Shown here: piece after piece, positions 2,680-63,894 of the stretch
Numbering within the stretch: the stretch's first letter is position 1
Layout: the number at the start of each line of letters is the position of its first letter
Origin: Siphonodentalium dalli
Taxonomy: Eukaryota; Mollusca; Scaphopoda; Gadilida; Siphonodentaliidae
Length of the DNA: 64,000 bases
Direction: 5' to 3'
Assembly: GCA_032622095.1 (NCBI GenBank)
Contig: CP136065.1
Span: 149,177,577-149,241,576, forward strand
The notes under the pieces: generated by a model
What the model was told of the DNA's origin: nothing
Seen by the model: the letters and a program-made list of their open reading frames with translations, nothing else
Databases searched by the model: none
Made by a program: the position numbers and the translations under genes

Positions 2680-2984
2680 GACCCCTATTCCCACCATAAC
2701 TGACAAGTGTAATGAAAGTGTCAATGACACTGTAGCTCAACTTGGAAAGGGAATACTTTAATGTATTACAGTCAATGGAGCTATTAGGAATGTGGAAAGT
2801 TGAATGTCTAATACGGCAGCGGCTATTCGCCATCGGATGGCAAATAGCGATTCTACCGATATGCGCTATTTGCCATCCGATGGTATTTTAAAGAAAAGAA
2901 AACATATCTTATCATCACAATATGCTAATATAACGAGGATTCCTACCGCCTTCGTGATCATTAGGCCCAGTTGACCGTCGGTTG

Positions 2985-3430
2985 ACCACCCACAGATATC
3001 CTGGGGGGATGGCAAATAAGAAATCGACCAATTTTGAAGTAAATTTCGTATAGTTTGAACATTTAGTGGCACAAGCTGTCGCTATATGGCCACATAATCA
3101 CCATTTGTACCCGCCTTACTGAAACCCCGTACCAGTTGACCGTCGGTTGATCACCTACAGATATCCTGGGGGGATGGCAAATAAGAAATCGAGTAATTTT
3201 GAAGGAAATTTCGTATAGTTTTAACATTTAGTGGCACAAGCTGTCGCTATATGGCCACATAATCACCATTTGTACCCACCTTACTGAAAACCCGGACCAG
3301 TTGACCGTCGGTTGACCACCCACAGATATCCTGGGGGGATGGCAAATAAGAAATCGACCAATTTTGAAGGAAATTTCGTATAGTTTGAACATTTAGTGGC
3401 ACAAGCTGTCGCTATATGGCCACATAATCA
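2985..3430 (-). repeat. 165-bp tandem array, short inverted arm
   Basis: About 2.7 copies of the 165-bp monomer in the orientation opposite to the main array. The orientation switch is at about 3430, where CACATAATC meets AAACAAACTCAAACTATACG. Confidence 0.9.
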
Positions 3431-6400
3431 AACAAACTCAAACTATACGAAATTTCCTTCAAAATTACTCGATTTCTTATTTGCCATCCCCCCAGGATAT
3501 ATGTAGGTGGTCAACCGACGGTCAACTGGTCCGGGTGTTCAGTAAGGCGGGTACAAATGGTGATTATGTGGCCATATAGCGACAGCTTGTGCCACTAAAT
3601 GTTCAAACTATACGAAATTTCCTTCAAAATTGGTCGATTTCTTATTTGCCATCCCCCCAGGATATCTGTGGGTGGTCAACCGACGGTCAACTGGTCCGGG
3701 TTTTCAGTAAGGCGGGTACAAATGGTGACTATGTGGCCATATAGCGACAGCTTGTGCCACTAAATGTTCAAACTATACGAAATTTCCTTCATAATTACTC
3801 GATTTCTTATTTGCCATCCCCCCAGGATATCTGTAGGTGGTCAACCGACGGTCAACTGGTCCGGGTTTTCAGTAAGGCGGGTACAAATGGTGATTATGTG
3901 GCCATATAGCGACAGCTTGTGCCACTAAATGTTCAAACTATACGAAATTTCCTTCAAAATTGGTCGATTTCTTATTTGCCATCCCCCAGGATATCTGTGG
4001 GTGGTCAACCGACGGTCAACTGGTCCGGGTTTTCAGTAAGGCGGGTACAAATGGTGATTATGTGGCCATATAGCGACAGCTTGTGCCACTAAATGTTCAA
4101 ACTATACGAAATTTCCTTCAAAATTGGTCGATTTCTTATTTGCCATCCCCCCAGGATATCTGTGGGTGGTCAACCGACGGTCAACTGGTCCGGGTTTTCA
4201 GTAAGGCGGGTACAAATGGTGATTATGTGGCCAGATAGCGACAGCTTGTGCCACTAAATGTTCAAACTATACGAAATTTCCTTCAAAATTTGTCGATTTC
4301 TTATTTGCCATCCCCCCAGGATATCTGTAGGTGGTCAACCGACGGTCAACTGGTCCGGGTTTTCAGTAAGGCGGGTACAAATGGTGATTATGTGGCCATA
4401 TATCGACAGCTTGTGCCACTAAATGTTCAAACTATACGAAATTTCCTTCAAAATTGGTCGATTTCTTATTTGCCATCCCCCCAGGATATCTGTAGGTGGT
4501 CAACCGACGATCAACTGGTCCGGATTTTCAGTAAGGCGGGTACAAATGGCGATTATGTGGCCATATAGCGACAGCTTGTGCCACTAAATGTTCAAACTAT
4601 ACGAAATTTCCTTCAAAATTACTCTATTTCTTATTTGCCATCCCCCCAGGATATATGTAGGTGGTCAACCGACGGTCAACTGGTCCGGGTTTTCAGTAAG
4701 GCGGGTACAAATGGTGATTATGTGGCCATATAGCGACAGCTTGTGCCACTAAATGTTCAAACTATACGAAATTTCCTTCAAAATTGGTCGATTTCTTATT
4801 TGCCATCCCCCCAGGATATCTGTGGGTGGTCAACCGACGGTCAACTGGTCCGGGTTTTCAGTAAGGCGGGTACAAATGGTGATTATGTGGCCATATAGCG
4901 ACAGCTTGTGCCACTAAATGTTCAAACTATACGAAATTTCCTTCAAAATTACTCGATTTCTTATTTGCCATCCCCCCAGGATATCTGTAGGTGGTCAACC
5001 GACGGTCAACTGGTCCGGGTTTTCAGTAAGGCGGGTACAAATGGTGATTATGTGGCCATATAGCGACAGCTTGTGCCACTAAATGTTCAAACTATACGAA
5101 ATTTCCTTCAAAATTGGTCGATTTCTTATTTGCCATCCCCCGGGATATTTGTGGGTGGTCAACCGACGGTCAACTGGTCCGGGTTTTCAGTAAGGCGGGT
5201 ACAAATGGCGATTATGTGGCCATATAGCGACAGCTTGTGCCACTAAATGTTCAAACTATACGAAATTTCCTTCAAAATTACTCGATTTCTTATTTGCCAT
5301 CCCCCCAGGATATCTGTAGGTGGTCAACCGACGGTCAACTGGTCCGGGTTTTCAATAAGGCGGGTACAAATGGTGATTACGTGGCCATATAGCGACAGCT
5401 TGTGCCACTAAATGTTCAAACTATACGAAATTTCCTTCAAAATTACTCGATTTTTTATTTGCCATCCCCCCAGGATATCTGTAGGTGGTCAACCGACGGT
5501 CAACTGGTCCGGGTTTTCAGTAAGGCGGGTACAAATGGTGATTATGTGGCCATATAGCGACAGCTTGTGCCACTAAATATTCAAACTATACGAAATTTCC
5601 TTCAAAATTGGTCGATTTCTTATTTGCCATCCCCCCAGGATATCTGTGGGTGGTCAACCGACGGTCAACTGGTCCGGGTTTTCAGTAAGGCGGGTACAAA
5701 TGGTGACTATGTGGCCATATAGCGACAGCTTGTGCCACTAAATGTTCAAACTATACGAAATTTCCTTCATAATTACTCGATTTCTTATTTGCCATCCCCC
5801 CCCCCAGGATATCTGTAGGTGGTCAACCGACGGTCAACTGGTCCGGGTTTTCAGTAAGGCGGGTACAAATGGTGATTATGTGGCCATATAGCGACAGCTT
5901 GTGCCACTAAATGTTCAAACTATACGAAATTTCCTTCAAAATTGGTCGATTTCTTATTTGCCATCCCCCAGGATATCTGTGGGTGGTCAACCGACGGTCA
6001 ACTGGTCCGGGTTTTCAATAAGGCGGGTACAAATGGTGATTATGTGGCCATATAGCGACAGCTTGTGCCACTAAATGTTCAAACTATACGAAATTTCCTT
6101 CAAAATTGGTCGATTTCTTATTTGCCATCCCCCCAGGATATCTGTGGGTGGTCAACCGACGGTCAACTGGTCCGGGTTTTCAGTAAGGCGGGTACAAATG
6201 GTGATTATGTGGCCAGATAGCGACAGCTTGTGCCACTAAATGTTCAAACTATACGAAATTTCCTTCAAAATTGGTCGATTTCTTATTTGCCATCCCCCAG
6301 GATATCTGTAGGTGGTCAACCGACGGTCAACTGGTCCGGGTTTTCAGTAAGGCGGGTACAAATGGTGATTATGTGGCCATATATCGACAGCTTGTGCCAC

Positions 6401-7985
6401 TAAATGTTCAAACTATACGAAATTTCCTTCAAAATTGGTCGATTTCTTATTTGCCATCCCCCCAGGATATCTGTAGGTGGTCAACCGACGATCAACTGGT
6501 CCGGATTTTCAGTAAGGCGGGTACAAATGGCGATTATGTGGCCATATAGCGACAGCTTGTGCCACTAAATGTTCAAACTATACGAAATTTCCTTCAAAAT
6601 TACTCGATTTCTTATTTGCCATCCCCCCAGGATATATGTAGGTGGTCAACCGACGGTCAACTGGTCCGGGTTTTCAGTAAGGCGGGTACAAATGGTGATT
6701 ATGTGGCCATATATCGACAGCTTGTGCCACTAAATGTTCAAACTATACGAAATTTCCTTCAAAATTGGTCGATTTCTTATTTGCCATCCCCCCAGGATAT
6801 CTGTAGGTGGTCAACCGACGATCAACTGGTCCGGATTTTCAGTAAGGCGGGTACAAATGGCGATTATGTGGCCATATAGCGACAGCTTGTGCCACTAAAT
6901 GTTCAAACTATACGAAATTTCCTTCAAAATTACTCGATTTCTTATTTGCCATCCCCCCAGGATATATGTAGGTGGTCAACCGACGGTCAACTGGTCCGGG
7001 TTTTCAGTAAGGCGGGTACAAATGGTGATTATGTGGCCATATAGCGACAGCTTGTGCCACTAAATGTTCAAACTATACGAAATTTCCTTCAAAATTGGTC
7101 GATTTCTTATTTGCCATCCCCCCAGGATATCTGTGGGTGGTCAACCGACGGTCAACTGGTCCGGGTTTTCAGTAAGGCGGGTACAAATGGTGATTATGTG
7201 GCCATATAGCGACAGCTTGTGCCACTAAATGTTCAAACTATACGAAATTTCCTTCAAAATTACTCGATTTCTTATTTGCCATCCCCCCAGGATATCTGTA
7301 GGTGGTCAACCGACGGTCAACTGGTCCGGGTTTTCAGTAAGGCGGGTACAAATGGTGATTATGTGGCCATATAGCGACAGCTTGTGCCACTAAATGTTCA
7401 AACTATACGAAATTTCCTTCAAAATTGGTCGATTTCTTATTTGCCATCCCCCGGGATATCTGTGGGTGGTCAACCGACGGTCAACTGGTCCGGGTTTTCA
7501 GTAAGGCGGGTACAAATGGCGATTATGTGGCCATATAGCGACAGCTTGTGCCACTAAATGTTCAAACTATACGAAATTTCCTTCAAAATTACTCGATTTC
7601 TTATTTGCCATCCCCCCAGGATATCTGTAGGTGGTCAACCGACGGTCAACTGGTCCGGGTTTTCAGTAAGGCGGGTACAAATGGTGATTATGTGGCCATA
7701 TAGCGACAGCTTGTGCCACTAAATGTTCAAACTATACGAAATTTCCTTCAAAATTACTCGATTTTTTATTTGCCATCCCCCCAGGATATCTGTAGGTGGT
7801 CAACCGACCGTCAACTGGTCCGGGTTTTCAGTAAGGCGTGTACAAATGGTGATTATGTGGCCATATAGCGACAGCTTGTGCCACTAAATATTCAAACTAT
7901 ACGAAATTTCCTTCAAAATTGGTCGATTTCTTATTTGCCATCCCCCCAGGATATCTGTGGGTGGTCAACCGACGGTCAACTGGGC
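3431..7985 (+). repeat. 165-bp tandem array, long arm (about 28 units)
   Basis: Monomer landmarks: GTGCCACTAAATGTTCAAAC, TTATTTGCCATCCCCCCAGG and GGTCAACCGACGGTCAACTG. Spacing is 164-166 bp. Variant markers reveal larger duplications: TTCATAATTACTCG at about 3788 and 5767; ATATATCGACAG at about 4397, 6381 and 6711; CCCCGGGATAT at about 5137 and 7448. This implies a block copy of about 1.98 kb plus a 330-bp dimer duplication. Confidence 0.95.
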
Positions 7986-8144
7986 CTAATGATCAAGAAG
8001 GCGGTAGGAATCCTCGTTATAATAGCGTATTATGATGATATGATATGTTTTCTTTTCTTTAAAATTCCATCGGATGGCAAATAGCGCATATCGGTAGAAT
8101 CGCTATTTGCCATCCGATGGCGAATAGACACTTCCGTCTAATAC

Positions 8145-11100
8145 TAGTTAAAAGACATGAAGAGAAAAGTAAAATCCAAGATGGCTGCTGGCGGCCACGA
8201 TTTCGGCCGAATGACCCCAAAATGAGTCGTTCCCATCTACGTGTCATCGTTAACATACATGACAAATTTTATGACGATCAGACGAAAGGTACGACCTGTA
8301 GCCCATGCTAAAGAATTTAGTCATACAAAGAGTAAAATCCAAGTTGGCTGCTGGCGGCCATGTTTTTTGGCCGAATCACCCCAAAATGACTCGTTCCCAT
8401 CTACATGTCAATATTATCATCCATGACAAATTTCATGATGATCAGACGAACAGTACGACCTATGGCCCGTGCTAATGGATTAAATTTTGAAATCCAAGAT
8501 GGCCGCTGGCGGCCATGTTTTTTGTCCAAATGACCCCAAAATAACTCGTTCCCATCTACATTCCAATTTCAACAGCCATGACAAATGTTATGATGATCAG
8601 ACTAAAGGTACGACCTGTAGCCCGTGCTAAAGGATTTAGTCATACAAAGAGTAAAATCCAAGATGGCTGCTGGCGGCCATGTTTTTTGGCCGAATGACCC
8701 CAAAATGACTCGTTCCCATCTACATGTCATTATTAACATTCATGACACATTTATGATGATCAGACTAAAGGTACGACCTGCAGCCCGTGCTAAAGAATTT
8801 AGTCATCCAAGATGGTTGCTGGCGGCCATGTTTTTTGGCCGAATAACCCCAAAGTTACTCGTTCCCATCTACATGTCAATATTATCATCCATGACAAATT
8901 TCATGATGATCAGACGAACAGTACGACCTGTGGCCCGTGCTAATGGATTAAATTTTGAAATCCAAGATGGCCGCTGGCGGCCATGTTTTTTGTCCAAATG
9001 ACCCCAAAATAACTCGTTCCCATCTACATTCCAATTTCAACAGCCATGACAAATTTTATGATGATCAGACTAAAGGTACGACCTGTAGCCCGTGCTAAAG
9101 GATTTAGTCATACAAAGAGTAAAATCAAAGATGCCTGCTGGCGGCCATGTTTTTTGACCGAATGACCCCAAAATGACTCGGACCCATCTACATGTCATTA
9201 TTAACATTCATGACAAATTTTATGCTGATCAGACTAAAGGTACGACCTGTAGCCCGTGCTAATTAAAGGATTTAGTCATACAAAGAGTAAAATCCAAGAT
9301 GGCTGCTGGCGGCCATGTTTTTTGGCCAAATGACCCCAAAATTACTCGTTCCCATTTACATGTCAATATTAACATCCATGACAAATTTGATGATGATCAG
9401 ACTAAAGGTACGACCTGTAGCCCGTGCTAAATAATTTAGTCATACAAAGAGTAAAATCCAAGATGGCTGCTGGCCGCATGTTTTTAGGCCAAATGGCCCC
9501 AAAATTACTCGTTCCCATCTACATGTCAATATTAACATCCATGACAAATTTCATGATGATCAGACGAACAGTACGACCTGTGGCCCGTGCTAATGGATTG
9601 AATTTTGAAATCCAAGATGGCCACTGGCGGCCATTGTTTTTTGTCCGAATGACCCCAAAATTACTCGTTCCCATCTACATTCCAATTTCAACAGCCATGA
9701 CAAATTTTATGATGATCAGACTAAAGGTACGACCTGTAGCCCGTGCTAAAGGATTTAGTCATACAAAGAGTAAAATCAAAGATGCCTGCTGGCGGCCATG
9801 TTTTTTGACCGAATGACCCCAAAATGACTCGTACCCATCTAAATGTCATTATTAACATTCATGACAAATTTTATGCTGATCAGACTAAAGGTACGACCTG
9901 TAGCCCGTGCTAAAGGATTTAGTCATACAAAGAGTAAAATCCAAGATGGCTGCTGGCGGCCATGTTTTTTGGCCAAATGACCCCAAAATTACTCGTTCCC
10001 ATTTACATGTCAATATTAACATCCATGACAAATTTGATGATGATCAGACTAAAGATACGACCTGTAGCCCGTGCTAAATAATTTAGTCATACAAAGAGTA
10101 AAATCCAAGATGGCTGCTGGCCGCATGTTTTTAGGCCAAATGACCCCAAAATTACTCGTTCCCATCTACATGTCAATATTAACATCCATGACAAATTTCA
10201 TGATGATCAGACGAACAGTACGACCTGTGGCCCATGCTAATGGATTGAATTTTGAAATCCAAGATGGCCACTGGCGGCCATTGTTTTTTGTCCGAATGAC
10301 CCCAAAATGACTCGTTCCCATCTACATTCCAATTTCAACAGCCATGACAAATTTTATGATGATCGGACTAAAGGTACGACCTGTAGCCCGTGCTAAAGGA
10401 TTTAGTCATACAAAGAGTAAAATCAAAGATGCCTGCTGGCGGCCATGTTTTTTGACCGAACGACATGACATTTTACCCCAAAATGACTCGTTCCCATCTA
10501 CATGTTATTATCAACATTCATGACAAATTTTATGATGATCAGACTAAAAGTACGACCTGTAGCCCGTGCTAAAGGATTTAGTCATACAAAGAGTAAAATC
10601 CAAGATGGCTGCTGGCGGCCATGTTTTTGGGCCAAATGACCCCAAAATTACTCGTTCCCATCTACATGGCAATATTAACATCCATGACAAATTTGATGAT
10701 GATCAGACTAAAGGTACGACCTGTAGCCCGTGCTAAAGAATTTAGTCATCCAAGATGGCTGCTGGCGGCCATGTTTTTTGGCCGAATGACCCCAAAATTA
10801 CTCGTTCCCATCTACATGTCAATATTATCATCCATGACAAATTTCATGATGATCAGACGAACAGTACGACCTGTGGCCCGTGCTAATGGATTAAATTTTG
10901 AAATCCAAGATGGCCGCTGGCGGCCATGTTTTTTGTCCAAATGACCCCAAAATAACTCGTTTCCATCTACATTCCAATTTCAACAGCCATGACAAATTTT
11001 ATGATGATCAGACTAAAGGTACGACCTGCAGCCCATGCTAAAGGATTTAGTCATACAAAGAGTAAAATCCAAGATGGCTGCCATGTTTTTTTGGCCGAAT

Positions 11101-14100
11101 GACCCCAAAATTACTCGTTCCCATCTGCATGTCAATATTGTCATCCATGACAAATTTCATGATGATCAGACTAACAGTACGACCTGTGGCCCGTGCTAAT
11201 GGATTAAATTTTAAAATCCAAGATGGCCGCTGGCGGCCATGTTTTTTGTCCAAATGACCCCAAAATAACTCGTTCCCATCTACATTCCAATTTCAACAGC
11301 CATGACAAATGTTATGATGATCAGACTAAAGGTACGACCTGTAGCCCGTGCTAAAGGATTTAGTCATACAAAGAGTAAAATCCAAGATGGCTGCTGGCGG
11401 CCATGTTTTTTGGCCGAATGACCCCAAAATGACTCGTTCCCATCTACATGTCATTATTAACATTCATGACAAATTTATGATGATCAGACTAAAGGTACGA
11501 CCTGCAGCCCGTGCTAAAGAATTTAGTCATCCAAGATGGTTGCTGGCGGCCATGTTTTTTGGCCGAATAACCCCAAAGTTACTCGTTCCCATCTACATGT
11601 CAATATTATCATCCATGACAAATTTCATGATGATCAGACGAACAGTACGACCTGTGGCCCGTGCTAATGGATTAAATTTTGAAATCCAAGATGGCCGCTG
11701 GCGGCCATGTTTTTTGTCCAAATGACCCCAAAATAACTCGTTCCCATCTACATTCCAATTTCAACAGCCATGACAAATTTTATGATGATCAGACTAAAGG
11801 TACGACCTGTAGCCCGTGCTAAAGGATTTAGTCATACAAAGAGTAAAATCCAAGATGGCTGCTGGCGGCCATGTTTTTTGGCCGAATGACCCCAAAATGA
11901 CTCGTTCCCATCTACATGTCATTATTAACATTCATGACACATTTATGATGATCAGACTAAAGGTACGACCTGCAGCCCGTGCTAAAGAATTTAGTCATAC
12001 AAAGAGTAAAATCCAAGATGGCTGCTGGCGGCCATGTTTTTTGGCCAAATGACCCCAAAATTACTCGTTCCCATTTACATGTCAATATTAACATCCATGA
12101 CAAATTTGATGATGATCAGACTAAAGGTACGACCTGTAGCCCGTGCTAAATAATTTAGTCATACAAAGAGTAAAATCCAAGATGGCTGCTGGCCGCATGT
12201 TTTTAGGCCAAATGGCCCCAAAATTACTCGTTCCCATCTACATGTCAATATTAACATCCATGACAAATTTCATGATGATCAGACGAACAGTACGACCTGT
12301 GGCCCGTGCTAATGGATTGAATTTTGAAATCCAAGATGGCCACTGGCGGCCATTGTTTTTTGTCCGAATGACCCCAAAATGACTCGTTCCCATCTACATT
12401 CCAATTTCAACAGCCATGACAAATTTTATGATGATCAGACTAAAGGTACGACCTGTAGCCCGTGCTAAAGGATTTAGTCATACAAAGAGTAAAATCAAAG
12501 ATGCCTGCTGGCGGCCATGTTTTTTGACCGAATGACCCCAAAATGACTCGTACCCATCTAAATGTCATTATTAACATTCATGACAAATTTTATGCTGATC
12601 AGACTAAAGGTACGACCTGTAGCCCGTGCTAAAGGATTTAGTCATACAAAGAGTAAAATCCAAGATGGCTGCTGGCGGCCATGTTTTTTGGCCAAATGAC
12701 CCCAAAATTACTCGTTCCCATTTACATGTCAATATTAACATCAATGACAAATTTGATGATGATCAGACTAAAGATACGACCTGTAGCCCGTGCTAAATAA
12801 TTTAGTCATACAAAGAGTAAAATCCAAGATGGCTGCTGGCCGCATGTTTTTAGGCCAAATGACCCCAAAATTACTCGTTCCCATCTACATGTCAATATTA
12901 ACATCCATGACAAATTTCATGATGATCAGACGAACAGTACGACCTGTGGCCCATGCTAATGGATTGAATTTTGAAATCCAAGATGGCCACTGTTTTTTGT
13001 CCGAATGACCCCAAAATGACTCGTTCCCATCTACATTCCAATTTCAACAGCCATGACAAATGTTATGATGATCGGACTAAAGGTACGACCTGTAGCCCGT
13101 GCTAAAGGATTTAGTCATACAAAGAGTAAAATCAAAGATGCCTGCTGGCGGCCATGTTTTTTGACCGAACGACATGACATTTTACCCCAAAATGACTCGT
13201 TCCCATCTACATGTTATTATCAACATTCATGACAAATTTTATGATGATCAGACTAAAAGTACGACCTGTAGCCCGTGCTAAAGGATTTAGTCATACAAAG
13301 AGTAAAATCCAAGATGGCTGCTGGCGGCCATGTTTTTGGGCCAAATGACCCCAAAATTACTCGTTCCCATCTACATGGCAATATTAACATCCATGACAAA
13401 TTTGATGATGATCAGACTAAAGGTACGACCTGTAGCCCGTGCTAAAGAATTTAGTCATCCAAGATGGCTGCTGGCGGCCATGTTTTTTGGCCGAATGACA
13501 CCAAAATTACTCGTTCCCATCTACATGTCAATATTATCATCCATGACAAATTTCATGATGATCAGACGAACAGTACGACCTGTGGCCCGTGCTAATGGAT
13601 TAAATTTTGAAATCCAAGATGGCCGCTGGCGGCCATGTTTTTTGTCCAAATGACCCCAAAATAACTCGTTTCCATCTACATTCCAATTTCAACAGCCATG
13701 ACAAATTTTATGATGATCAGACAAAAGGTACGACCTGCAGCCCATGCTAAAGGATTTAGTCATACAAAGAGTAAAATCCAAGATGGCTGCCATGTTTTTT
13801 TGGCCGAATGACCCCAAAATTACTCGTTCCCATCTGCATGTCAATATTGTCATCCATGACAAATTTCATGATGATCAGACTAACAGTACGACCTGTGGCC
13901 CGTGCTAATGGATTAAATTTTAAAATCCAAGATGGCCGCTGGCGGCCATGTTTTTTGTCCAAATGACCCCAAAATAACTCGTTCCCATCTACATTCCAAT
14001 TTCAACAGCCATGACAAATGTTATGATGATCAGACTAAAGGTACGACCTGTAGCCCGTGCTAAAGGATTTAGTCATACAAAGAGTAAAATCCAAGATGGC

Positions 14101-17100
14101 TGCTGGCGGCCATGTTTTTTGGCCGAATGACCCCAAAATGACTCGTTCCCATCTACATGTCATTATTAACATTCATGACAAATTTATAATGATCAGACTA
14201 AAGGTACGACCTGCAGCCCGTGCTAAAGAATTTAGTCATCCAAGATGGTTGCTGGCGGCCATGTTTTTTGGCCGAATAACCCCAAAGTTACTCGTTCCCA
14301 TCTACATGTCAATATTATCATCCATGACAAATTTCATGATGATCAGACGAACAGTACGACCTGTGGCCCGTGCTAATGGATTAAATTTTGAAATCCAAGA
14401 TGGCCGCTGGCGGCCATGTTTTTTGTCCAAATGACCCCAAAATAACTCGTTCCCATCTACATTCCAATTTCAACAGCCATGACAAATTTTATGATGATCA
14501 GACTAAAGGTACGACCTGTAGCCCGTGCTAAAGGATTTAGTCATACAAAGAGTAAAATCCAAGATGGCTGCTGGCGGCCATGTTTTTTGGCCGAATGACC
14601 CCAAAATGACTCGTTCCCATCTACATGTCATTATTAACATTCATGACACATTTATGATGATCAGACTAAAGGTACGACCTGCAGCCCGTGCTAAAGAATT
14701 TAGTCATACAAAGAGTAAAATCCAAGATGGCTGCTGGCGGCCATGTTTTTTGGCCAAATGACCCCAAAATTACTCGTTCCCATTTACATGTCAATATTAA
14801 CATCCATGACAAATTTGATGATGATCAGACTAAAGGTACGACCTGTAGCCCGTGCTAAATAATTTAGTCATACAAAGAGTAAAATCCAAGATGGCTGCTG
14901 GCCGCATGTTTTTAGGCCAAATGGCCCCAAAATTACTCGTTCCCATCTACATGTCAATATTAACATCCATGACAAATTTCATGATGATCAGACGAACAGT
15001 ACGACCTGTGGCCCGTGCTAATGGATTGAATTTTGAAATCCAAGATGGCCACTGGCGGCCATTGTTTTTTGTCCGAATGACCCCAAAATGACTCGTTCCC
15101 ATCTACATTCCAATTTCAACAGCCATGACAAATTTTATGATGATCAGACTAAAGGTACGACCTGTAGCCCGTGCTAAAGGATTTAGTCATACAAAGAGTA
15201 AAATCAAAGATGCCTGCTGGCGGCCATGTTTTTTGACCGAATGACCCCAAAATGACTCGTACCCATCTAAATGTCATTATTAACATTCATGACAAATTTT
15301 ATGCTGATCAGACTAAAGGTACGACCTGTAGCCCGTGCTAAAGGATTTAGTCATACAAAGAGTAAAATCCAAGATGGCTGCTGGCGGCCATGTTTTTTGG
15401 CCAAATGACCCCAAAATTACTCGTTCCCATTTACATGTCAATATTAACATCCATGACAAATTTGATGATGATCAGACTAAAGATACGACCTGTAGCCCGT
15501 GCTAAATAATTTAGTCATACAAAGAGTAAAATCCAAGATGGCTGCTGGCCGCATGTTTTTAGGCCAAATGACCCCAAAATTACTCGTTCCCATCTACATT
15601 TCAATATTAACATCCATGACAAATTTCATGATGATCAGACGAACAGTACGACCTGTGGCCCATGCTAATGGATTGAATTTTGAAATCCAAGATGGCCACT
15701 GGCGGCCATTGTTTTGTGTCCGAATGACCCCAAAATGACTCGTTCCCATCTACATTCCAATTTCAACAGCCATGACAAATTTTATGATGATCGGACTAAA
15801 GGTACGACCTGTAGCCCGTGCTAAAGGATTTAGTCATACAAAGAGTAAAATCAAAGATGCCTGCTGGCGGCCATGTTTTTTGACCGAACGACATGACATT
15901 TTACCCCAAAATGACTCGTTCCCATCTACATGTTATTATCAACATTCATGACAAATTTTATGATGATCAGACTAAAAGTACGACCTGTAGCCCGTGCTAA
16001 AGGATTTAGTCATACAAAGAGTAAAATCCAAGATGGCTGCTGGCGGCCATGTTTTTGGGCCAAATGACCCCAAAATTACTCGTTCCCATCTACATGGCAA
16101 TATTAACATCCATGACAAATTTGATGATGATCAGACTAAAGGTACGACCTGTAGCCCGTGCTAAAGAATTTAGTCATCCAAGATGGCTGCTGGCGGCCAT
16201 GTTTTTTGGCCGAATGACCCCAAAATTACTCGTTCCCATCTACATGTCAATATTATCATCCATGACAAATTTCATGATGATCAGACGAACAGTACGACCT
16301 GTGGCCCGTGCTAATGGATTAAATTTTGAAATCCAAGATGGCCGCTGGCGGCCATGTTTTTTGTCCAAATGACCCCAAAATAACTCGTTTCCATCTACAT
16401 TCCAATTTCAACAGCCATGACAAATTTTATGATGATCAGACTAAAGGTACGACCTGCAGCCCATGCTAAAGGATTTAGTCATACAAAGAGTAAAATCCAA
16501 GATGGCTGCCATGTTTTTTTGGCCGAATGACCCCAAAATTACTCGTTCCCATCTGCATGTCAATATTGTCATCCATGACAAATTTCATGATGATCAGACT
16601 AACAGTACGACCTGTGGCCCGTGCTAATGGATTAAATTTTAAAATCCAAGATGGCCGCTGGCGGCCATGTTTTTTGTCCAAATGACCCCAAAATAACTCG
16701 TTCCCATCTACATTCCAATTTCAACAGCCATGACAAATGTTATGATGATCAGACTAAAGGTACGACGTGTAGCCCGTGCTAAAGGATTTAGTCATACAAA
16801 GAGTAAAATCCAAGATGGCTGCTGGCGGCCATGTTTTTTGGCCGAATGACCCCAAAATGACTCGTTCCCATCTACATGTCATTATTAACATTCATGACAA
16901 ATTTATGATGATCAGACTAAAGGTACGACCTGCAGCCCGTGCTAAAGAATTTAGTCATCCAAGATGGTTGCTGGCGGCCATGTTTTTTGGCCGAATAACC
17001 CCAAAGTTACTCGTTCCCATCTACATGTCAATATTATCATCCATGACAAATTTCATGATGATCAGACGAACAGTACGACCTGTGGCCCGTGCTAATGGAT

Positions 17101-18915
17101 TAAATTTTGAAATCCAAGATGGCCGCTGGCGGCCATGTTTTTTGTCCAAATGACCCCAAAATAACTCGTTCCCATCTACATTCCAATTTCAACAGCCATG
17201 ACAAATTTTATGATGATCAGACTAAAGGTACGACCTGTAGCCCGTGCTAAAGGATTTAGTCATACAAAGAGTAAAATCAAAGATGCCTGCTGGCGGCCAT
17301 GTTTTTTGACCGAATGACCCCAAAATGACTCGTACCCATCTAAATGTCATTATTAACATTCATGACAAATTTTATGCTGATCAGACTAAAGGTACGACCT
17401 GTAGCCCGTGCTAATTAAAGGATTTAGTCATACAAAGAGTAAAATCCAAGATGGCTGCTGGCGGCCATGTTTTTTGGCCAAATGACCCCAAAATTACTCG
17501 TTCCCATTTACATGTCAATATTAACATCCATGACAAATTTGATGATGATCAGACTAAAGGTACGACCTGTAGCCCGTGCTAAATAATTTAGTCATACAAA
17601 GAGTAAAATCCAAGATGGCTGCTGGCCGCATGTTTTTAGGCCAAATGGCCCCAAAATTACTCGTTCCCATCTACATGTCAATATTAACATCCATGACAAA
17701 TTTCATGATGATCAGACGAACAGTACGACCTGTGGCCCGTGCTAATGGATTGAATTTTGAAATCCAAGATGGCCACTGGCGGCCATTGTTTTTTGTCCGA
17801 ATGACCCCAAAATGACTCGTTCCCATCTACATTCCAATTTCAACAGCCATGACAAATTTTATGATGATCGGACTAAAGGTACGACCTGTAGCCCGTGCTA
17901 AATGATTTAGTCATACAAAGAGTAAAATCAAAGATGCCTGCTGGCGGCCATGTTTTTTGACCGAACGACCCCCAAATGACTCGTTCCCATCTACATGTTA
18001 TTATCAACATTCATGACAAATTTTATGATGATCAGACTAAAAGTACGACCTGTAGCCCGTGCTAAAGGATTTAGTCATACAAAGAGTAAAATCCAAGATG
18101 GCTGCTGGCGGCCATGTTTTTGGGCCAAATGACCCCAAAATTACTCGTTCCCACCTACATGACATTGTTAATATCCATGACAAATTTTATGATGATCAGA
18201 CTAAAGGTACGACCTGCAGCCCGTGCTAAAGAATTTAGTCATCCAAGATGGCTGCTGGCGGCCATGTTTTTTGGCCGAATGACCCCAAAATTACTCGTTC
18301 CCATCTACATGTCAATATTATCATCCATGACAAATTTCATGATGATCAGACGAACAGTACGACCTGTGGCCCGTGCTAATGGATTAAATTTTGAAATCCA
18401 AGATGGCCGCTGGCGGCCATGTTTTTTGTCCAAATGACCCCAAAATAACTCGTTTCCATCTACATTCCAATTTCAACAGCCATGACAAATTTTATGATGA
18501 TCAGACTAAAGGTACGACCTGCAGCCCATGCTAAAGGATTTAGTCATACAAAGAGTAAAATCCAAGATGGCTGCCATGTTTTTTGGCCGAATGACCCCAA
18601 AATTACTCGTTCCCATCTGCATGTCAATATTATCATCCATGACAAATTTCATGATGATCAGACTAACAGTACGACCTGTGGCCCGTGCTAATGGATTAAA
18701 TTTTAAAATCCAAGAAGGCTGCTGGCGGCCATGTTTTTTGTCCGAATGACCCCAAAATTACTCGTTCCCATCTACATGTCAATATTATCAACCATGACAA
18801 ATTTCATGATGATCAGACTAACAGTACGACCTGTGGCCCGTGCTAATGGATAAAAAATTTTAATCCAAGATGGCCGCTGGCGGCCATGTTTTTTGTCCGA
18901 ATGACCCCAAAAGTA
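8145..18915 (+). repeat. tandem array of about 160-bp units with 2.7-kb higher-order repeat
   Basis: Units of about 155-165 bp with landmarks TACGACCTGTAGCCCGTGCT, AAATCCAAGATGGCTGCTGG, CGGCCATGTTTTTTGGCC and CTCGTTCCCATCTACATGTC. Several unit subtypes repeat in a fixed order: the marker GACCGAACGACATGACATTT falls near 10456, 13165 and 15884, a period of 2709-2719 bp. There are three full blocks from about 8624, 11348 and 14057, and a shortened fourth from 16776. The short open frames are by-products of the repeat. Confidence 0.93.
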
Positions 18916-18926
18916 AAGTTGAGCTA

Positions 18927-19151: not shown

Positions 19152-20095
19152 AATGAAAGTGTCAATGACACTGTAGCTCAACTTAGGTAAGGGAATAATT
19201 TAATGGTTGACAGTAAATGGAGGAATAGGAAAGGTGCTAACCTGTGCCAAAGGATTTAGTCATGCAAAGAGTAAAATCCAAGATGGCCACTGGCGGGCAT
19301 GTTTTTTGGCCGAATGATCCCAAATGACTCGTTCCCATCTACATGTCTTTATTAACATTCTTGACAAATTTTATGATGATCAGACTAAAAGTACGACCTG
19401 TAGCCCATGCTAAAGAATTTAGTCATACAAAGAGTAAAATCCAAGATGGCTGCCATGTTTTTGGGCCAAATGACCCCAAAATTACTCGTTCCCACCTACA
19501 TGACATTGTTAATATCCATGACAAATTTTATGATGATCAGACTAAAGGTACGACCTGCAGCCCGTGCTAAAGAATTTAGTCATACAAAGAGTAAAATCCA
19601 AGATGGCTGCTGGTGGTCATGTTTTTTGGCCGAATAACCTCAAAATGACTCGATCCCATCTACATGTCATTCTTAACATCCATGGCAAATGAAGTTCTGA
19701 CCATAGCTACGACCTGTAGCCCTCGCCAAAGGATTTAGTCATGCAAAGAGTAAAATCCAAGATGGCTGCTGGCGGCCATGTTTTTTGGCCGAACGACCCC
19801 AAAATCACTCGTTCCGATCTACATGTCAATATTAACATCCATGACAAATTTCATGATGATCAGACGAACAGTACTACCTGTAGACCGTGCCAATGGATTT
19901 AATTTTGAAATCCAAGATGGCCACCAGCGGCCATGTTTTTTGGCCGAATGTCCCAAAAATGACTCGTTCCCATCTACATGTCAATGTCAACATTCATGAC
20001 AAATTTCATAAAGATCAGACCTGTAGCCCGCGCTACGGACACATGGACGACAACCCATGGCAATAGCTCAAACTTACAAAGTAAGTTGAGCTAAA
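19152..20095. mobile_element. pearl/HINE-like element, short copy 2
   Basis: Starts with the same AATGAAAGTGTCAATGACAC...TAGCTCAACTTA as the giant copy and ends in a hairpin AGCTCAAACTTA...TAAGTTGAGCT (about 20064-20092). It holds about five of the 160-bp units. It is essentially a complete short version of the 2711-18926 element. Confidence 0.65.
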
Positions 20096-20924
20096 AACCA
20101 ATTATTTTAAAGGTACTCAATCCAATTAAGCACCCCTAAATTACTATTTCTTTGGCTTCGGGGTAAAAAATATTTGATTCAAGTCGAGGAACCCACCATT
20201 CAAAGCTTAGAGTGATCAGATATCGATTTTTGAAATGTGTTAATTTTTGGAGATGTGGTCCACTTCCACGTCTCATCGGACAAATTACGGGTGTAAGATG
20301 GATAACTCTAATTTAATGACATTAAGTCACATGTACTTGAGGGATATTCTAAACAGGGCATCACCTATAATCTATAAGAATATTCAATAGGTGTCTTATT
20401 GAGTGTTGCAAAGGGGGGAGGGTTAATTTAATATTTTTCTGCAGTTGAAACAATAGTCGTGTAGATTTATGTTTGTGTATACCCATTGCACAGATAATTC
20501 ATATTGGCTAGCAGCCATTAGTTTAATATTCATAGCATGTGTATGGGGTGGGTAGGATTAATATAATTTTCAAGATCAATTAGTCAATCCAACAATCCAT
20601 ACAGGTGAAGAGTGCAGATACACCTAGATGAGAAATTCGAGGAAGAGCCCATAGATGCATGCTATACATGGGCTCTTCCTTTTTTTTCTTTTCGGAGCAG
20701 ATCAATAGAAATATACCAGGCTCTTATGCAGGTGAGGGGGTGTGTCATCAGAAACCATGTAATGAAATTTCAACAGAATTGGAGGAACTTCAGTAGTATG
20801 TCATCCATTAATCCCATTTTGACATATATAAGCAATTAAATACAGCACCCTATCTGTTCCTCTTGCCACTGGTCATAACAGCAACTATGGCATTACTTGC
20901 AGATTTCATGGCAAGTGCACACAT
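20096..20924. other. no gene; one perfect 12-bp-stem hairpin
   Basis: No coding region or family repeat recognised. GGAAGAGCCCAT (20641-20652) pairs with ATGGGCTCTTCC (20668-20679), followed by a T-rich run. Confidence 0.5.
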
Positions 20925-21538
20925 AATGAAAGTGTCCATGACACTGCAGCTCAACTTTGCAAAGAAGTAAAATTTATGTAATGAGCAATAAACGGAATGA
21001 TGAATTGAATTTTGAAATCCAAGATAGCCGCTGGTGGCCATGTTTTTTTCTTCAGAATGACCCCAAAATGACTCATTCCGCATCTACATGTCAATATTAA
21101 CATCCATGACAAATTTCATGATCCAACCAAAGGTACTAGCTGCAGCCCTTGCCAAAAGATTTAGTCATGCAAAGAGTAAAATCCAAGATGGCTGCTGGTG
21201 GCCATGTTTTATGCCAAATGGCCCCAAAATGACTCGTTCCCATCCACATGTCAACAGCCATGACAAATTTCATAATGATCTGACCAAAATACGACTTTTA
21301 GCACATGCCAAAATGGACGTCGGCGGCCATGTTTTTTGGCCAAATGACCTGACCCTAAGATGACTCGTTCCAATCTACATGTCAATGTCAACAGCCATGA
21401 CAAATTTCATGATGATCCGACCAAAGGTACGAACTGTAGCCCATGCTAATTGAAATTGTTGGGCGATGTCTCCACACACATGCACCACGGATACTAAGCC
21501 ATAACAACAGCTCAAACTTTACAGTAAAGTTGAGCTAA
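20925..21538. mobile_element. pearl/HINE-like element, short copy 3
   Basis: Left end AATGAAAGTGTCCATGACAC, then CAGCTCAACTTT. The right-end hairpin is AGCTCAAACTTTAC...GTAAAGTTGAGCT (about 21510-21537). It contains about three internal units with AAATCCAAGAT and CTCGTTCC landmarks, more diverged than in the giant copy. Confidence 0.65.
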
Positions 21539-21799
21539 AAATGGATGTATTATGTTATAGGTCTGTTCGTTCGCTTTTGGTTTCCGGATGATAACTTGCG
21601 TTCTCAACTGAATGGAATGAAATTTGGGTTCCGTCCGCCAATATTTACCAGAGATATGGCCCATTGTTGTAATTACCAGGACCGTATTTTGCCTTTCAGT
21701 AAGAGTTTTTGCAGGGAAGAAAATGAAGAAACAGTTAACATAACCAAGCTTTTATTTATAACCTGCTTAGTCCCATATGATGAACAAAACTTCAACTGA
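21539..21799 (+). repeat. dispersed repeat fragment
   Basis: TTTGGTTTCCGGATGATAAC and the following bases resemble segments at about 2185-2215 and 2345-2370 on the opposite strand (ATCATCTGGAAACCAAA). The 84-codon open frame here has no recognisable domain and is treated as repeat sequence. Confidence 0.4.

Positions 21800-23686: not shown

Positions 23687-63894
<40,208 letters not shown>

What the first reader, a model, noticed from the sequence alone, without database searches (positions are those of the whole stretch)
2815..8135. Foldback transposon with very unequal arms built from a 165-bp satellite
An exact 9-bp duplication (GTCTAATAC) flanks inverted tips, and the interior is a 165-bp array that switches orientation at about 3430, leaving about 2.7 units one way and about 28 the other. 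The element is both a transposon and a satellite seed. The unequal arms suggest that one arm expanded by unequal exchange after or before insertion. The 9-bp TSD points to Mutator-like mobilisation, which I infer from TSD length and TIR form only.
Basis: partly seen in the sequence, partly recalled or inferred. Interest (0 to 1): 0.75.

Follow-up and report, generated by a model that had tools for sequence, protein, structure and literature searches.

The report
Foldback transposon carrying a satellite array
This is a jumping DNA element with mirror-image ends whose inside is almost entirely one 165-base repeat; it sits inside a second, different repeat-carrying element, and is a good but not unprecedented example of how mobile DNA can carry and grow satellite DNA.

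Summary
At 2815-8135 there is a 5,321-bp element with 153-bp inverted tips (144 of 153 bases identical). An exact 9-bp direct repeat (GTCTAATAC), found nowhere else in the window, flanks it. The interior is one 165-bp satellite that switches orientation across a 7-bp spacer: 2.8 units to the left, 27.6 to the right, with no loop domain.

New here: (i) each tip holds a stem-loop with a perfect 20-bp stem, and 60 tip bases are identical in both arms; (ii) the right arm carries a near-duplicated 12-unit block (about 1.98 kb, 98.6-98.8% identical), which fits expansion by unequal exchange; (iii) the insertion lies in the leader of a HINE-like (Helentron-type) element that carries an unrelated 164-bp array of about 10.7 kb; two shorter relatives of that element follow it; (iv) tip and unit share a 12-bp word, a possible transposase site, on modest statistics.

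The foldback reading is supported. Mutator membership rests on the 9-bp TSD and on analogy only: no host genome is held, so other copies and a transposase could not be sought. Tetris (Drosophila virilis) and Tm1 (Meloidogyne) are close published precedents. Verdict: a new member of a known kind, of fairly low interest.

The parts
2806..2814 (+). Left target-site duplication GTCTAATAC
   Evidence: exact match to 8136-8144; only two occurrences in the window
2815..2966 (+). Left tip domain of the terminal inverted repeat
   Evidence: 144/153 identical to the right tip over 2815-2967
2830..2883 (+). Stem-loop in the left tip: 20-bp perfect stem, 14-nt loop
   Evidence: self-inverted match; DNA fold z-score -7.6, 0 of 200 shuffles as stable
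2967..3430 (-). Left arm: 2.8 units of the 165-bp satellite
3431..3437 (.). 7-bp spacer AACAAAC at the orientation switch; no loop domain
3438..7983 (+). Right arm: 27.6 units of the 165-bp satellite
3603..5580 (+). 12-unit block R02-R13, near-duplicate of units in R14-R27
   Evidence: 98.6-98.8% identical to 5581-7891 at lags of 12 and 14 units
5581..7891 (+). Units R14-R27: second 12-unit block plus about 2 extra units
7984..8135 (-). Right tip domain of the terminal inverted repeat, with the same stem-loop (8067-8120; z -7.8)
8136..8144 (+). Right target-site duplication
2711..2814 (+). Left module (leader) of the HINE-like element into which the foldback inserted; subterminal repeat AGCTCAACTT at 2734
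   Evidence: 2711-2790 is 87.7% identical to the leader of a second element at 19152-19231; 2743-2811 is 80% identical to 29332-29401; motif
8145..18925 (+). Rest of that HINE-like element: about 67 units of an unrelated 164-bp satellite (8168-18912), then the inverted subterminal repeat AAGTTGAGCT at 18916

Best explanation
A non-autonomous foldback-type DNA transposon. A transposase supplied in trans recognised its hairpin-bearing tips, cut it out elsewhere and inserted it at GTCTAATAC in the leader of a HINE-like element, duplicating 9 bp (inferred from anatomy). Between the tips its body is only an inverted pair of arms made of one 165-bp satellite. The two arms then changed length separately: unequal exchange or replication slippage in the right arm duplicated blocks of units, most recently about 12 units and about 2 units, while the left arm has under 3 units. 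The transposase is most likely of the Mutator superfamily (Phantom/FB/Tm1-like), but that step is only inferred.
For: Exact 9-bp TSD and 153-bp inverted tips. Both arms join their tips at the same place in the unit. Within the right arm, units 12 or 14 apart differ by 1.81% and 1.44%, against 2.35-3.40% at the other 18 of the 20 lags tried; two alignments of about 1.98 kb are 98.64% and 98.79% identical. The tips differ by 5.9% (9/153), so the block duplication looks younger than the divergence of the arms. Both flanks belong to one HINE-like leader: with the element and one TSD copy removed, the span from AGCTCAACTT to AGTAAAATCC is 104 bp, against 95 bp in the neighbouring element. A further leader-like stretch (29332-29401) matches the left flank up to base 2811, inside the TSD, so the TSD bases belong to the target. 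Tip hairpins.
Against: No second copy, no empty allele and no transposase seen; elsewhere in the window the tips give only short chance-level hits (13-19 bp, E 0.09-0.31), and the host genome is not held. The bases next to the insertion align poorly to the neighbouring leaders, and the stretch at 29332-29401 does not continue into the right flank, so no base-exact empty site was found. Gene conversion within the array could make the block duplication look young, and the tips may have differed before insertion. The choice of bases 10-69 as the conserved part was made after seeing the alignment.
Confidence: 0.82

Rival explanations
1. A foldback element of another superfamily (as Galileo is of the P superfamily, or a Merlin-type element), not Mutator.
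For: Foldback form has arisen in more than one superfamily: Galileo carries a P-type transposase (PMC3169594 section 11; PMC3573991 passages). No transposase was seen here (10 ORFs scanned).
Against: A 9-bp TSD fits Mutator (8-11 bp, PMC6446971 passages); Galileo's are 7 bp (PMC3573991 passages). That Merlin makes 8-9 bp is recalled, not looked up, and would not exclude it.
Confidence: 0.25
2. The unequal arms were already present in the donor, and the whole 5.3-kb element jumped as it is; the array is cargo, not an in-place expansion.
For: The exact TSD shows one joint insertion of both ends and says nothing about arm length at that time.
Against: The 12-unit duplication (1.2-1.4% diverged) looks younger than the tip divergence (5.9%), unless conversion hides its age or the tips differed before insertion.
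Confidence: 0.35
3. Assembly error: the right-arm length or the 12-unit duplication is a misassembly or a merged pair of haplotypes.
For: Two blocks of about 2 kb at 98.6-98.8% identity are the kind of repeat that assemblers mishandle; no reads could be seen.
Against: The blocks differ by 20 and 23 mismatches in the two registers, with unit-specific variants. Inverted tips plus TSD need a real orientation switch.
Confidence: 0.1
4. A satellite array with an ordinary inversion; tips and TSD are chance.
For: Orientation switches occur within satellite arrays in general (established knowledge, not tested here).
Against: Non-satellite 153-bp inverted tips at both outer ends, and an exact TSD with p about 6.5e-6 at fixed ends.
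Confidence: 0.02

Closest known systems
Tetris / TIR-220 (Drosophila virilis), PMC4079207
   Same: Foldback with a flanking tip domain, then tandem repeats (about 220 bp) in the terminal inverted repeats; 8-10 bp TSDs; no conserved ORF; two alleles of one copy differ by one unit; long satellite arrays (up to 66 units) grew from it; a short stretch is shared by tip domain and unit (37 bp at about 80% there, a 12-bp exact word here).
   Different: Here there is no inner domain and no middle domain (7-bp spacer only), the tips are about 153 bp against up to 866 bp, and a very unequal, long array is still bounded by both tips and an exact TSD. Sequences were not compared.
Tm1 Mutator/Foldback family (Meloidogyne), PMC3169594
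   Same: Commonly 9-bp TSDs; composite terminal inverted repeats with unit number differing between the two ends of one element; mean arm identity 93.15%, tips here 94.1%; outermost bases not well matched between ends (7-bp motifs there; here 3 of the first 8 bases differ).
   Different: Tm1 units are about 14 bp and 1-9 in number; a Phantom-type transposase is known for Tm1, none here.
Galileo foldback-like elements of Drosophila (PMC3573991, PMC3688188)
   Same: Internally repetitive arms; tandem-repeat numbers that differ between the two TIRs of one copy; transposase-binding sites inside some of the repeats.
   Different: 7-bp TSDs and P superfamily; two or three tandem copies (about 210 bp) in F-subfamily TIRs, against 27.6 here.
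Cg_HINE non-autonomous Helentrons of the Pacific oyster (PMC7492417)
   Same: Concerns the insertion-site element, not the foldback: subterminal inverted repeats in the two modules, satellite-like centre, 3' palindrome (seen in the two neighbours).
   Different: The host element here carries about 10.7 kb of array with a period of about 2.7 kb on top; that paper speaks of short arrays. The left-module inverted repeat of the paper was not properly met here.

Membership tests
Foldback-type transposon (structural class) | Long terminal inverted repeats that contain tandem repeats | tested here: met
Foldback-type transposon (structural class) | Bounded by a target-site duplication | tested here: met
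   GTCTAATAC twice, nowhere else in the window
Foldback-type transposon (structural class) | Dispersed copies with the same tips | not testable with these tools
   host genome not held; no other copy in this 64-kb window; exact-pattern scans of viral and prokaryotic contigs, not the right organisms, gave 0
Mutator (MULE) superfamily | TSD of 8-11 bp, often 9 | tested here: met
   range from PMC6446971 passages
Mutator (MULE) superfamily | MULE transposase in the element or in a relative with the same tips | not testable with these tools
   the three stop-to-stop frames of 100 aa or more inside the element are translations of the satellite; 10 other ORFs gave only GT41 in three; relatives not searchable
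Tetris family proper | Sequence identity to the Tetris TIR | not tested
   Tetris sequence not held; only anatomy compared
Helentron/HINE (insertion-site element) | Subterminal inverted repeats in left and right modules | tested here: met
   AGCTCAACTT at 2734, 19175, 20948; AAGTTGAGCT at 18916, 20083, 21527, also at 30460 and 41397 (up to one mismatch allowed)
Helentron/HINE (insertion-site element) | Inverted repeat complementary to the subterminal repeat close by in the left module (7-12 bp, 1-12 bp away in PMC7492417) | tested here: not met
   longest exact piece 7 bp at 2797 (over 50 bp away) in the host element, 5 bp in each neighbour; inexact copies not tested. Hence 'HINE-like' only
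Helentron/HINE (insertion-site element) | 3' palindrome in the right module | tested here: inconclusive
   one neighbour folded (21495-21540, z -4.0, 1 of 200 shuffles as stable), the other read by eye; in the host element only the second half remains
Helentron/HINE (insertion-site element) | No TSD, insertion at oligo-T, microsatellite in the left module | not tested
   outer ends of these elements were not mapped to the base

The most novel reading that the evidence does not exclude
A mobile satellite: every 165-bp unit carries a copy of the tip's transposase-binding word (TATTTGCCATCC), so the array itself is a string of extra recognition sites. The element then stays mobile while one arm grows to satellite size, and it carries ready-made satellite arrays to new places, including into other satellite-bearing transposons.
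Probability: 0.15. Interest if true: 0.55.

Novelty: new member of a known kind. Interest (0 to 1): 0.33.

Why it matters
It is a clean intermediate between a foldback transposon and a satellite array: both tips and the TSD survive while one arm is about ten times as long as the other. Because it is nested in a HINE-like element with its own array, one locus shows two unrelated transposon types each carrying a satellite. If copies with graded arm lengths exist, the steps from transposon arm to satellite could be ordered in time.

Tried and rejected
Search of the window's own genome: not held. Exact-pattern scans for a 19-bp tip word and a 24-bp unit word in viral and in prokaryotic contigs: 0 matches each; these collections should not hold an animal repeat, so this is no evidence of rarity. 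tRNA and Rfam (gathering threshold) scans of the window: nothing. Pfam on 10 of the 39 listed ORFs: only GT41/OGT, in three of them; the other 29 (many are translations of the arrays) and frames under 100 aa were not scanned, so a broken transposase elsewhere in the window is not excluded.

The idea that the 165-bp unit is related to the neighbouring 164-bp unit was rejected: all 32 BLAST hits of the unit (E up to 1) lie inside the element. The shared 12-bp word between tip and unit is suggestive only: 13 of 3,000 dinucleotide shuffles of the tip share a word of 12 or more (maximum 15), and in a local alignment test at least one of 1,000 shuffles reached 33 against 24 observed (shuffle mean 17.3). 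The word is in 29 of 29 full units, but so are 26 of the unit's 165 12-mers. That the TSD might be an extension of the inverted repeat was considered, because it matches its own reverse complement at 6 of 9 positions; the direct match is 9 of 9, so TSD is preferred. The left leader 2706-2760 does not fold clearly better than chance (z -1.1, 33 of 200 shuffles as stable). No base-exact empty site was found.
Full report
OBSERVATION. GTCTAATAC lies at 2806-2814 and 8136-8144 and nowhere else in the window. Between the two copies lie 153-bp inverted tips, 144 of 153 bases identical, and two arrays of one 165-bp unit in opposite orientation: 2967-3430 with 2.8 units and 3438-7983 with 27.6 units. 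They meet across a 7-bp spacer, AACAAAC. The longest inverted pair in the region is 624 bp, 96% complementary, and takes in the TSD. At a fixed pair of ends an exact 9-bp match has a chance of about 6.5e-6; 1 of 200,000 random unrelated pairs of 9-mers matched.

TIPS. The nine differences between the tips are at positions 3, 6, 8, 70, 95, 104, 109, 114 and 140; bases 10-69 are identical (Fisher p = 0.012 against the rest; the stretch was chosen after seeing the alignment). It holds a stem-loop with a 20-bp perfect stem and a 14-nt loop, more stable than any of 200 shuffles in each tip (z -7.6 and -7.8). Conserved hairpin tips fit a transposase-recognition role (inference). Elsewhere in the window the tips give only short chance-level hits (13-19 bp, E 0.09-0.31).

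ARMS. Cutting the arms into units gives 28 on the right (27 full, one of 92 bp) and 4 pieces on the left (42, 165, 165, 94 bp). In the right arm, units 12 or 14 positions apart differ least (1.81% over 15 pairs, 1.44% over 13 pairs); the other 18 of 20 lags tested lie at 2.35-3.40%. Units 2-13 align to units 14-27 at 98.64% and 98.79% over about 1.98 kb in two registers. The simplest history is one duplication of about 12 units plus one of about 2 units; before it, by this reckoning, the right arm already had about 14 units. The tips differ by 5.9%, so the block duplication looks younger than the divergence of the two arms; conversion within the array, or tips that already differed before insertion, could mislead this dating. 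Left and right units are close: L02 differs from R09 and R23 at 1 of 165 positions and from the outermost R28 at 0 of the 92 they share; L03 from R10, R24 and R26 at 4 of 165; L04 from R28 at 1 of 92. On average left units differ from right ones slightly more (5.8) than right ones do among themselves (4.8). This is what arms that began as a mirror pair and then changed separately would show, but it does not prove that order.

SETTING. The left flank 2711-2790 is 87.7% identical to 19152-19231, the leader of another element in the window. A further stretch, 29332-29401, is 80% identical to 2743-2811, that is, up to three bases before the end of the TSD; it does not continue into the right flank. 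The motif AGCTCAACTT stands at 2734, 19175 and 20948, and its reverse complement at 18916, 20083 and 21527 (also at 30460 and 41397; up to one mismatch allowed in this scan). This marks three elements with subterminal inverted repeats around arrays of one 164-bp satellite: about 2711-18925, 19152-20092 and 20921-21536. One of the neighbours ends in a palindrome that folds (z -4.0), the other in one read by eye. This resembles the HINE elements of oysters (passages of PMC7492417), but the left-module inverted repeat described there was not found at the stated distance, so I call them HINE-like. The foldback sits in the leader of the largest; 23 bp lie between the right TSD copy and the array (8168). 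Without the element and one TSD copy the leader measures 104 bp between two shared words, against 95 bp in the neighbour; the bases next to the insertion align poorly. This shows the nesting, not a base-exact empty site. The two satellites are unrelated in sequence, despite periods of 165 and 164 bp.

HOST. Pieces of a GT41 O-GlcNAc transferase lie on the minus strand at 27.4-40.0 kb (3 of 10 ORFs scanned). The best solved-structure matches of one piece are entries named as the 110-kDa OGT subunit (that these are the human enzyme is recalled), so the host is probably an animal. HINE-like elements suggest a mollusc, but this is an inference and no species could be named.

MECHANISM. Shown: one joint insertion of both ends (TSD), mirror arms, block duplication in one arm. 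Inferred: movement by a transposase supplied in trans; Mutator type; recognition at the hairpin tips; unequal exchange or slippage as the source of the right arm. Every one of 29 full units carries TATTTGCCATCC, which the tips also hold on both strands. In Galileo, transposase-binding sites have been shown near the tip and inside two of four long repeats (passages of PMC3688188), so the word may be such a site. The statistics are modest: 13 of 3,000 shuffles share a word as long, and in a local alignment test the best of 1,000 shuffles scored higher than the real tip.

COMPARISON. Tetris of Drosophila virilis (abstract, section 10 and part 1 of 2 of section 16 of PMC4079207 read) is a foldback with 8-10 bp TSDs, about 220-bp repeats in its arms, an allele pair differing by one unit, and arrays of up to 66 units that grew inside the element; its authors also place it in Mutator without a transposase. 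Tm1 of root-knot nematodes (abstract, section 9 and part 1 of 2 of section 11 of PMC3169594) has 9-bp TSDs, unequal unit numbers at the two ends of one element, and a Phantom-type Mutator transposase. Galileo TIRs also differ in tandem-repeat number within one copy (passages of PMC3573991). In a MULE survey (passages of PMC6446971) the TSD is given as 8-11 bp, Rehavkus and aphid Phantom carry minisatellites, and a mollusc MULE group is listed without TIRs or a stated TSD. So foldback form, 9-bp TSD, unequal arms and satellite growth are each in print. What I did not see in what I read is such an extreme one-sided array still framed by both tips and a TSD, and the nesting in a HINE-like element. 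The paper searches aimed at foldbacks with satellites or in molluscs (5 papers, Tetris among them; 15 listed of 349; 1 paper) listed no title describing this. That is a weak absence: listings only, and most subscription journals are not held. In one oyster satellite paper (PMC8268682, passages) 'foldback' occurs once, as the Tetris reference, and two satellites are labelled MuDR; in another (PMC11136912) it occurs once in a passage not shown.

VERDICT. It is a new member of a known kind with an instructive anatomy.

Noticed in passing
8168-18912: 164-bp satellite (about 67 units) with a higher-order period of about 2.71 kb (best ungapped self-match at lags 5428, 2709 and 2719), bounded by HINE-like modules.
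   Followed up: partly
19152-20092 and 20921-21536: Two further HINE-like elements with the same leader, the same 164-bp repeat type and inverted subterminal repeats, close behind the first: three relatives in a row.
   Followed up: partly
43763-54702: A third tandem family: 217-bp arrays of 17.6, 5.3 and 3.3 copies, with a 214-bp (3.5 copies) and a 173-bp (2.0 copies) stretch nearby.
   Followed up: no
2462-2679 and 58226-58462: Dispersed repeat (83% identical over 240 bp) that contains CCCCCATTTTCTTCGAAAGTGGGGG, an imperfect inverted pair, at 2649 and 58432, left of the HINE-like leader; possibly the end of another mobile element.
   Followed up: no
27370-40000: Exon pieces of an O-GlcNAc transferase (GT41) on the minus strand.
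   Followed up: partly
890-1438 and 33632-34160: A direct repeat of about 550 bp, 85.5% identical, not identified.
   Followed up: no
2806-2814: The target site GTCTAATAC is itself partly palindromic (6 of 9 positions match its reverse complement); with one site no preference can be claimed.
   Followed up: no
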